A stretch of 64,000 bases of DNA from Halostagnicola sp. A-GB9-2 (GTDB lineage: Archaea; Halobacteriota; Halobacteria; Halobacteriales; Natrialbaceae). Numbering within the stretch: position 1 is the first letter of the stretch; every line of letters starts with the position of its first letter. A program made the translations under genes and the position numbers. The stretch lies in NCBI RefSeq assembly GCF_030068615.1, contig NZ_JASJOC010000002.1, positions 124,001-188,000 on the forward strand. The letters run 5' to 3'. A model generated the notes under the pieces. It was not told the DNA's origin and ran no database searches. It saw only the letters and a program-made list of their open reading frames with translations. This document shows, piece after piece, positions 11,322 through 12,697 of the stretch.

Positions 11322-11360
11322 ACAAGTGATTCCCCCTCATGCTCGAGTGTTATCACTTGT
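11322..11360. terminator. Hairpin just after bluB (9-bp perfect arms)
   Basis: ACAAGTGAT at 11322-11330 pairs with ATCACTTGT at 11352-11360. The right arm touches the bluB stop codon. A second short inverted repeat (TCGGCAGAT near 11250 and ATCTGCCGA near 11300) lies further on. The position immediately downstream of bluB suggests transcription termination or 3'-end protection, but there is no clean T-run after it, so an operator for the divergent potD promoter region is also possible. Confidence 0.4.
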
Positions 11361-12046
11361 TACCGTTCCGCACTATCGGCAGCGTTTTTCGGTTCCGTTT
11401 TCGCTTCCCACCGCTCGTCGTGGACGATCGTTTCGCGCTCGAGTCGCTCGCGCCACCCCTCGGTCTCGAGTACCGGCTCCTCGGGAAAGCCGGCTTCGGG
11501 ATACCCCAGGCAGAGATATGCGACCGGTTTGACGTGGGGCGGTATCTCGAGCAATTCCTGTAGTTCGGAGGGATAGAGGACGCTGACCCAGCCCACGCCG
11601 ACGCCTTCCGCTCGAGCCGCGAGCCAGAGGTTCTGGACGGCCAGACACGTCGAGTACACGTCCGTGCGCTTCATCGAGCTTCGACCCAGTACGTGGGGCG
11701 CGCCCCGCGTCGGGTCGCACGTGACACAGATGTTGAGGGGTGACTCGAGAATACCCTCGAGTTTGAGCGCGGCGTACTCGGACTTGCGCGGTTCCTTGTA
11801 GCCCGCTTCGGCGGCCGCGATTGCCCGATCCGCGATCGATTTAACCGCCCGTTTCGTCTCCTCGTCGCTGATCACGATCAGGTCCCACGGCTGAGAGAAG
11901 CCGACGCTCGGCGCGTGGTGGGCGGCGTCGACGAGTCGCTCGAGAATCCGTTCGGGAATCGGGTCATCTCGAAACCGGCGGATGTCCCGCCGCGCGTAGA
12001 TCGCTTTGTAAACGGCCTCGCGGTCGGCGTCCGTGAATTCAACCAT
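11360..12046 (-). CDS. bluB: BluB, 5,6-dimethylbenzimidazole synthase
   Basis: 228 aa, nitroreductase-fold flavoprotein of the BluB branch. BluB converts reduced FMN to 5,6-dimethylbenzimidazole, the lower ligand of cobalamin. The N-terminus MVEFTDADREAVYKAIYARR, the RDIRRFRDDPIPE block, HHAPSVGFSQPWDL and GVGVGWVSVLYPSEL are characteristic of BluB rather than of general nitroreductases. The start at 12046 is preferred because the upstream extension is low-quality sequence that overlaps an inverted-repeat region. It is a single gene. The window also encodes a cobalamin-dependent ribonucleotide reductase (46-49 kb), which gives a use for the product. Confidence 0.9.
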   Translation of the reverse strand: MVEFTDADREAVYKAIYARRDIRRFRDDPIPERILERLVDAAHHAPSVGFSQPWDLIVISDEETKRAVKSIADRAIAAAEAGYKEPRKSEYAALKLEGILESPLNICVTCDPTRGAPHVLGRSSMKRTDVYSTCLAVQNLWLAARAEGVGVGWVSVLYPSELQELLEIPPHVKPVAYLCLGYPEAGFPEEPVLETEGWRERLERETIVHDERWEAKTEPKNAADSAER

Positions 12047-12140
12047 GCCTTCAGTAGAACAATTTCGGTGGGTGAGAAAGTCGTATCGAAGTGGAATCGC
12101 GCTGTGGGGAGTGTCGCGCCTCGCGGATGCTCGTCGGGTT

Positions 12141-12220
12141 ATACGGTCGGTTGTCAGCCATTTCCGGAGCAACCACGAGTCGTCCTTCGGTTGCTCCGGT
12201 AAATCGTTAACCGACCGTAT
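12141..12220. repeat. Nested inverted repeat upstream of bluB
   Basis: Outer arms ATACGGTCGGTT (12141-12152) and AACCGACCGTAT (12209-12220) are perfect complements. Inside them CCGGAGCAACC (12164-12174) and GGTTGCTCCGG (12189-12199) are also perfect. The element starts ~95 bp upstream of the bluB start, in what would be its promoter or leader. The same two-level architecture recurs at 36998-37077. Confidence 0.8.
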
Positions 12221-12239
12221 CAAACCGAGTGCATCCAGT

Positions 12240-12334
12240 CTCACTTACGGAATACAGCATCCGAACTCACGGAATTGCACTCACGGAATACAGCTTCCGC
12301 GCTCACGAAAGCACGGCACCTGCGCTCACGGAAG
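12240..12334. repeat. Degenerate CTCACGGAA repeats at the rhodanese 3' end
   Basis: Five copies of a CTCAC(tta)GGAA-like word begin at 12240, 12266, 12280, 12302 and 12325. Spacings are 26, 14, 22 and 23 bp. Parts of the flanks also repeat (GGAATACAGC twice). The last copy covers the stop codon of the rhodanese gene. They look like a decayed tandem array. They are too irregular and too few to be CRISPR. Confidence 0.6.
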
Positions 12335-12697
12335 CACTGAACCCAGTACCGAACGCACCCGGTAGCCGAACGAATCGCTTTCGTAGCCCTTCCAACGGCG
12401 GATTCCGCCGGCCAGCGTCTCTGACTCGTAGCCCTCGTCCTCGAGAATTCGGGTCGCTTTTCGGGCGACGATCCCAGCCTTACAGACCGTGACGACGCGC
12501 CGATCCGAATCGAGGTCCTCGAGGTGTTCGCGAAACCCCTGACTCTCACCGTTTCGAAGCTCTCCGTAGACCGGAACGTTTCGACTGCCTTCGATATGGT
12601 CGTCCCGAAAGTCGGCGGCCGGTCGAATGTCGAGAACCACTGGGGCGTTGTCGCTCGCGAGTTGCTCGTCCAGCGCCGACGGCGAGATTTTACTCAT
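12326..12697 (-). CDS. Rhodanese-like sulfurtransferase domain protein
   Basis: 123 aa single rhodanese domain. VVLDIRPAADFRDDHIEGSRNVP (residues ~20-42) is the CH2A motif, and VVTVCKAGIVARKATRIL contains the active-site loop with the catalytic Cys (CKAGIVA). GGIRRWKG is the usual C-terminal motif. Members move sulfane sulfur or act as redox relays; the partner is unknown. The start MSKISPS at 12697 gives the normal domain length. It lies 68 bp downstream of nth on the same strand, so the two may be cotranscribed. Confidence 0.88.
   Translation of the reverse strand: MSKISPSALDEQLASDNAPVVLDIRPAADFRDDHIEGSRNVPVYGELRNGESQGFREHLEDLDSDRRVVTVCKAGIVARKATRILEDEGYESETLAGGIRRWKGYESDSFGYRVRSVLGSVLP

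What the first reader, a model, noticed from the sequence alone, without database searches (positions are those of the whole stretch)
12141..12220. Nested two-level inverted repeat upstream of bluB
Perfect 12-bp outer arms and perfect 11-bp inner arms enclose an 80-bp element with arms in the order A-B-B'-A'. Chance alone makes two perfect nested arms of this length unlikely. It may be a structured leader controlling bluB, a MITE-like element, or a protein-binding site.
Basis: seen in the sequence. Interest (0 to 1): 0.5.

Follow-up and report, generated by a model that had tools for sequence, protein, structure and literature searches.

The report
Haloarchaeal mini-transposon that favours stop codons
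The nested palindrome is one copy of a tiny gene-less jumping element that is scattered through salt-loving archaea and is found far more often than expected exactly at the stop codons of genes, which it duplicates on insertion and so leaves the genes intact.

Summary
In detail: outer arms 12141-12152/12209-12220 and inner arms 12164-12174/12189-12199 are perfect; 0 of 100 shuffled windows hold such a nest. It is not a bluB leader but one copy of a dispersed non-coding element of about 80 bp. At least 43 two-ended copies lie in this genome. Its end pattern occurs in 94 of 392 genomes of the order (reversed control: 10) and in 0 of 85 phylum genomes outside it. Copies carry a 3-bp TNA duplication; two Halomicrobium plasmids give three ungapped empty sites with a single TNA. 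Inner hairpins differ in sequence but keep their pairing. Unexpectedly, the duplicated triplet is often the neighbouring gene's stop codon: 18 of 43 copies here, 61 of 102 order-wide against 7.6% expected, 6 of 11 by public annotation. Copies with close siblings show it (22 of 56), isolated copies more (24 of 35), so insertion bias and retention probably both act. No transposase partner was found. The window copy itself lies between genes (TTA/TCA) and is absent upstream of bluB in the two genus-mates that have bluB.

The parts
12142..12219 (.). body of the mobile element (between the flanking triplets), non-coding nested palindrome
   Evidence: 20 match rows at 16 distinct places in the own genome, the best long matches 81-90% identical
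12139..12141 (.). left flanking triplet TTA (TNA; presumed target duplication with one substitution against the right TCA)
   Evidence: 33 of 43 own copies have identical TCA/TCA or TGA/TGA
12220..12222 (.). right flanking triplet TCA (TNA target duplication)
12141..12152 (+). outer arm A (terminal inverted repeat, left)
   Evidence: TIR pattern 75 hits vs 1 for the reversed control in own genome
12209..12220 (-). outer arm A' (terminal inverted repeat, right)
12164..12174 (+). inner arm B (subfamily-specific hairpin CCGGAGCAACC)
   Evidence: co-varying inner helix in alignment A1
12189..12199 (-). inner arm B'
11360..12046 (-). bluB, 5,6-dimethylbenzimidazole synthase; 92 nt lie between its start codon and the left triplet (neighbour, not part of the element)
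   Evidence: TIGR02476 276.9 bits, cutoff 150
12326..12697 (-). rhodanese-domain gene; 103 nt lie between its TGA stop and the right triplet, so this copy is not at a stop codon (neighbour, not part of the element)
   Evidence: PF00581, gene call

Best explanation
The window feature is one copy of a non-autonomous transposable element (MITE class, nested-palindrome type) that is widespread in the order. Shown: short, non-coding, 14-bp terminal inverted repeats, nested inner hairpin of variable sequence but conserved pairing, many dispersed copies, a 3-bp TNA target duplication, and empty sites in relatives. Also shown: copies are strongly over-represented exactly at TGA (sometimes TAA) stop codons, where the TNA duplication recreates the stop codon so that the reading frame is unharmed. 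Inferred: a transposase acting in trans makes 3-bp staggered cuts at a weakly palindromic GNC-TNA-GNC target. Haloarchaeal gene ends (a GNC codon before TGA) often resemble that target. Insertion there is harmless, and such copies are retained longest. The copy upstream of bluB is an ordinary intergenic insertion in this lineage and needs no function.
For: Copies and TIR. TSD: 33 of 43 own copies and 82 of 102 order-wide have identical flanking triplets; they are direct (TGA..TGA or TCA..TCA), not inverted as an extended TIR would give. Ungapped empty sites with one TNA: pLC1Hm-01 12940 and 123734, pHmuk01 187704. Stop codons: 18/43 vs 26/355; 10/29 for the own copies that BLAST had fetched; 6/10 in at most eight other genomes; 61/102 vs 107/1414, or 58/97 without five doubtful pairs; 6/11 vs 105/1793 by public annotation. 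Against sites within 60 nt of gene ends only: own 18:10 vs 26:60, p 0.0018; order-wide 61:12 vs 107:210, p 4e-15. Context-weighted null still exceeded. At-stop share 39%, 61%, 69% with falling sibling identity. Pairing: 69 cells changed on both sides vs 26.4 in shuffles; 9 of 10 inner pairs show it. Not conserved at bluB.
Against: No autonomous element with these ends was found near 8 DDE_Tnp_1 matches of the own genome and 30 of the 50 listed in six other carrier genomes, so mobilisation in trans is inferred. The window copy's own triplets differ (TTA/TCA); 10 of 43 own and 20 of 102 other copies have unequal triplets. No same-species pair showed a fresh insertion. In the youngest bursts the stop share is low (G221 3/9, G344 1/6; G221 2/10, partly the same places). 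TAA/TTA duplications also occur away from stops. Two of five co-variation measures did not exceed shuffles.
Confidence: 0.93

Rival explanations
1. The stop-codon excess is pure survivorship. Insertion is random at TNA sites, copies inside genes and in promoters are lost, and copies abutting a stop codon cannot be deleted imprecisely without harming the gene, so they persist.
For: The share at stop codons rises from copies with close siblings to copies without (22/56, 31/51, 24/35); it is low in the young bursts G221 and G344.
Against: Copies with a sibling at least 90% identical are already at 39% against 7.6% expected, and 22 of 36 near gene ends against 34% expected (p 0.0007). Insertions away from called stop codons show an intrinsic GNC-TGA preference.
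Confidence: 0.35
2. The insertion machinery itself seeks stop codons, by sequence context or by coupling to translation termination or mRNA 3' ends.
For: Enrichment is at the exact codon rather than near it (61 at, 12 within 60 nt; null 107 and 210). At pLC1Hm-01 166626 and pHmuk01 4681 two different elements occupy the same annotated stop codon. TAA duplications were found at TAA stops (L110, L315 and L329, 70886).
Against: Young bursts insert mostly elsewhere. TAA/TTA duplications are also found away from stops (L302 and L303, 17149). Target context alone explains at most about a twofold rise in expectation. No mechanism is known to me.
Confidence: 0.3
3. A regulatory leader or protein-binding element for bluB.
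For: Strong hairpin, 92 nt before the bluB start.
Against: Absent in both genus-mates that have bluB; copies beside other genes; no Rfam family at gathering score.
Confidence: 0.03
4. A functional 3'-end element (terminator or mRNA stabiliser, REP-like) kept by selection at gene ends.
For: Hairpins directly after stop codons; some orthologous copies persist in two related plasmids.
Against: Patchy: 0 hits in 4 genus-mates. Sites 1-30 nt downstream, equally suitable for a hairpin, are not enriched (8 of 102 copies, 106 of 1414 in the null). One pair of orthologous copies (L218/L220) has terminal arms mismatched at 4 and 3 of 14 positions.
Confidence: 0.08

Closest known systems
Prokaryotic MITEs (review PMC10969869, passages seen)
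   Same: short, non-coding, terminal inverted repeats, target duplication, many copies, no transposase gene
   Different: nested double palindrome with conserved pairing; excess at stop codons whose duplication preserves the gene; no autonomous partner found
Small mobile repeats (SMR) and MITEs of Haloquadratum walsbyi (PMC3119063, passages seen)
   Same: SMRs are about 80-110 bp, have prominent inverted terminal repeats, up to tens of copies, and ends unlike any known transposon
   Different: SMRs are described as making no target duplication and as targeting other mobile elements; here a 3-bp TNA duplication and gene ends. The H. walsbyi sequences (supplementary table) were not compared.
IS5-family subgroups and PIF/Harbinger elements with 3-bp duplications (TNA and IS5 subgroup detail recalled; the 3-bp duplication of PIF/Harbinger seen in the abstract start of PMC2213677 in a search listing)
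   Same: 3-bp duplication
   Different: no transposase seen; the ends were not matched to any such element here
Bacterial REP elements (features recalled; PMC2817692 seen in a search listing only)
   Same: palindromic, dispersed, often after genes
   Different: no target duplication is recalled for REPs; these elements have one

Membership tests
MITE | short non-coding element with terminal inverted repeats | tested here: met
MITE | multiple dispersed copies | tested here: met
MITE | target-site duplication | tested here: met
   33/43 and 82/102 identical triplets; three ungapped empty sites
MITE | ends shared with an autonomous transposon | tested here: inconclusive
   none found near 8 + 30 DDE_Tnp_1 loci; other transposase families not scanned
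Haloquadratum SMR | no target duplication | tested here: not met
   3-bp duplication
Haloquadratum SMR | terminal repeats unrelated to known transposons | tested here: inconclusive
   no partner found; ISfinder not available
IS5-family derived (TNA target) | IS5-type transposase with the same TIR | tested here: inconclusive
Riboswitch or known structured leader | match to an Rfam family | tested here: not met
   only a tRNA elsewhere in the window at gathering threshold

The most novel reading that the evidence does not exclude
An order-wide family of archaeal mini-transposons has evolved to insert at translation stop codons. Its TNA duplication recreates TGA or TAA, so every such gene end is a harmless landing pad, reached through a GNC-TNA-GNC target that mimics gene ends or through coupling to termination. 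The nested, co-varying double hairpin is required for the process.
Probability: 0.35. Interest if true: 0.8.

Novelty: new variant of a known kind. Interest (0 to 1): 0.62.

Why it matters
Mobile elements need landing sites that do not hurt the host. A 3-bp duplication that equals a stop codon solves this at a great many sites per genome, and it makes a clear prediction (TGA and TAA but never TAG) that can be tested by transposition assay. It also explains many unannotated palindromes directly behind haloarchaeal genes, which could otherwise be mistaken for terminators or regulatory leaders, as nearly happened here.

Tried and rejected
bluB leader: rejected, because the two genus-mates with bluB lack the element and the rhodanese gene there.

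Autonomous partner: I read the end matches in 14 regions of 8 kb around own-genome hits without a near partner, around the 8 transposase matches of the own genome and around 30 of the 50 listed transposase matches of six other carrier genomes. No convincing pair. One transposase gene lies between two ends (L364), but at least one other copy of that IS (L345) shows no such ends around it, so it looks like an IS inserted into a copy of the element (by reading).

Viral collections: no match to a strict end pattern in viral contigs or to one subfamily in phages. The genome-contig scan with the strict pattern gave one hit, Salinadaptatus halalkaliphilus.

The first stop-codon test, on the last 30 codons with a threshold of 10, flagged only 4 of 43. 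True gene ends score 10.6 on average and as low as 0.7 there, so I replaced it by whole-gene calls.

Own copies against genus-mates: at L122 both relatives, and at L045 one of three, end the gene in the same TGA without the element; at L045 the other two seem to end in TAG. The other flank is not alignable, so the length of the duplication could not be read. L031 was uninformative; the fourth joined query (L057) was not aligned.

Rows dropped: 12 of 55 candidate pairs in the own genome (overlapping, too long or badly paired). In one search, 8 of 110 loci had no pair. Five of the 102 pairs there are doubtful (L214, L254, L258, L281, L285); without them 58 of 97 are at a stop codon. In one search, 3 of the 102 were left out for length. 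In the plasmids, 1 of 12 pairs (pLC1Hm-01) and 6 of 17 (pHmuk01) were judged chance pairs by eye. The 80 loci L221-L300 were my choice from the places listed, a capped list, not a random draw. The pattern contains TSA, which favours copies whose triplet is intact, stop codons included. The BLAST-fetched own copies (10 of 29) and the plasmid copies (found without a triplet requirement) do not have this bias.

Literature: searches for the two end sequences (one search gave one unrelated duckweed paper) and for MITE, haloarchaea and stop-codon terms listed no paper that I recognised as describing this family; I opened passages of two papers only. This covers open-licence PubMed Central; ISfinder was not available.

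Full report
What is there. The nested inverted repeat is real and is the only one of its quality in the window; 0 of 100 shuffles reproduce it. Both strands fold strongly. It lies in the gap between a rhodanese-domain gene and bluB, both on the minus strand, 92 nt from the bluB start and 103 nt from the rhodanese stop. No Rfam family reaches its gathering score there.

It is a repeat. A DNA search of the own genome (4.68 Mb) gave 20 match rows at 16 distinct places for the window copy. It gave 42 rows at 34 places for a second subfamily that shares the ends but not the inner hairpin (some places are shared). The end pattern GATASGRTCKGYTGT (one mismatch) gives 75 hits against 1 for the reversed control. 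From the fetched loci 43 two-ended copies were kept of 55 candidate pairs; this is not an exhaustive count. They fall into subfamilies (75-88, 99, 109 and 138 bp) with different inner hairpins. The four genus-mates have no hits with the end-plus-subterminal pattern, and 8 of 125 family genomes (this one included) have some. Order-wide the 16-base end pattern occurs in 94 of 392 genomes, up to 64 hits in one; the reversed control gives 10 hits in 10 genomes, so some single hits are chance. In the 85 genomes that lie outside the order there was none. Named carriers of one subfamily are plasmids of Haloarcula, Halomicrobium, Natribaculum and Haloplanus.

It is mobile. In 33 of 43 own copies and 82 of 102 copies from other genomes the triplets at the two ends are identical and direct: TGA..TGA or TCA..TCA. 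Some copies in G157 and one in G221 have TAA..TAA or TTA..TTA, and so has the Salinadaptatus copy. The duplication is therefore TNA. Two related Halomicrobium plasmids, pLC1Hm-01 and pHmuk01, were compared. At three sites the partner plasmid aligns across the joined flanks without a gap and has a single TNA: pLC1Hm-01 12940 (356 nt aligned), pLC1Hm-01 123734 (501 nt) and pHmuk01 187704 (500 nt). Other sites were shared, partly rearranged or without a hit.

The stop-codon excess. Among noncoding TGA/TCA triplets of the window 26 of 355 are stop codons by my gene caller; in 181 kb of the own genome, 57 of 1697. Of the 43 own copies 18 have the duplicated triplet as the stop codon of the adjacent called gene; among the 29 of them that BLAST had fetched, 10. 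Near gene ends only (60 nt) it is 18:10 against 26:60 (p 0.0018). Ten copies in at most eight other genomes gave 6, one of them TAA at a TAA stop. The larger set gave 61 of 102 against 107 of 1414 in the same loci (p about 1e-41), and 61:12 against 107:210 near gene ends (Fisher p 4e-15); without five doubtful pairs it is 58 of 97. Ten copies of G157 gave 5. Public annotation, independent of my gene caller, gives 6 of 11 on pLC1Hm-01 against 105 of 1793 noncoding TNA (p 1.4e-5). On pHmuk01 it is 6 of 11, with annotated gene ends that I took. Some of these are shared insertions of the two plasmids and so not independent. At pLC1Hm-01 166626 and pHmuk01 4681 two different elements sit at the same annotated stop codon.

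Why at stop codons. Insertions away from called stop codons still prefer GNC-TGA, a weakly palindromic target. Weighting the null by this context raises the expectation from 3.4% to 4.5-6.4%, and near gene ends from 26% to 32-40%, still below the 18 of 28 observed (p 0.007 to 0.0005). Copies with a sibling of at least 90% identity are at stop codons in 22 of 56 cases, intermediate copies in 31 of 51, isolated copies in 24 of 35. Two young bursts show little excess (G221 3 of 9, G344 1 of 6), whereas G190 (8 of 9), G151 (6 of 6) and G162 (6 of 7) show much. So some bias exists early and retention strengthens it. How much is true targeting is open.

The nested hairpin. Of 140 elements the median folding z-score is -6.0 whole and -1.9 for the inner part alone (67 of 140 below -2). 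I aligned 28 elements of my choice (several from one genome, three from the own genome) and wrote a two-helix structure after seeing the alignment. In it 89.9% of cells pair (shuffles 78.5%, slid controls 27-48%), 69 cells changed on both sides against 26.4 in shuffles, the covariation score is 0.285 against 0.119, and 9 of 10 inner pairs show double changes. Two measures do not exceed the shuffles: pairs with a double change (12 against 10.1) and further pair types (23 against 23.3). RNAalifold's own consensus on the same alignment keeps 16 pairs, 10 with double changes. The sequence of the inner hairpin is thus free but its pairing is kept, at an almost constant total length (78-82 in 68 of 102). 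Selection for a hairpin or cruciform during mobilisation is the simplest reading; it is inferred.

What it does at bluB. In G001 and G002, the genus-mates that have bluB, the gene directly follows an endonuclease III gene (recognised by reading the sequence); there is no rhodanese gene and no element. The window copy is thus most simply a lineage-specific intergenic insertion. Its left triplet TTA differs from the right TCA by one base; unequal triplets are also seen in 9 other own copies.

What is missing. No transposase with these ends was found. The partner may be rare, may share only a few end bases, or may be of a transposase family that I did not scan.

Noticed in passing
window 12243-12340: Degenerate direct repeats of CTCACGGAATACAGC, four to five copies, between the element and the rhodanese stop; seen by eye, not reported as a tandem array by TRF, which gives only a 16-bp unit at 12341-12372.
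   Followed up: partly
window 12326-12697: The rhodanese gene between nth and bluB is absent at this place in the two genus-mates with bluB, so the nth-bluB gap differs between lineages by more than the element.
   Followed up: partly
L201 1503-1664: An element inserted inside another element with a TAA duplication (inner copy re-read).
   Followed up: no
L339 4601-4681 and L338 16546-16626: Two different elements at the same annotated stop codon in two related plasmids, like the 'SwitchRepeats' described for Haloquadratum (PMC3119063, passage seen).
   Followed up: no
L212, L254, L258, L283, L285: Single terminal repeats without a good partner, placed at the stop codon of a called gene: probably decayed copies. 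Three of them (L254, L258, L285) were counted with a doubtful second end.
   Followed up: partly
L364 1007-2499: A DDE_Tnp_1 transposase gene (458-codon frame) lies between two ends of the element; other copies of that IS appear to lack these ends, so it looks like an IS inserted into the element.
   Followed up: partly
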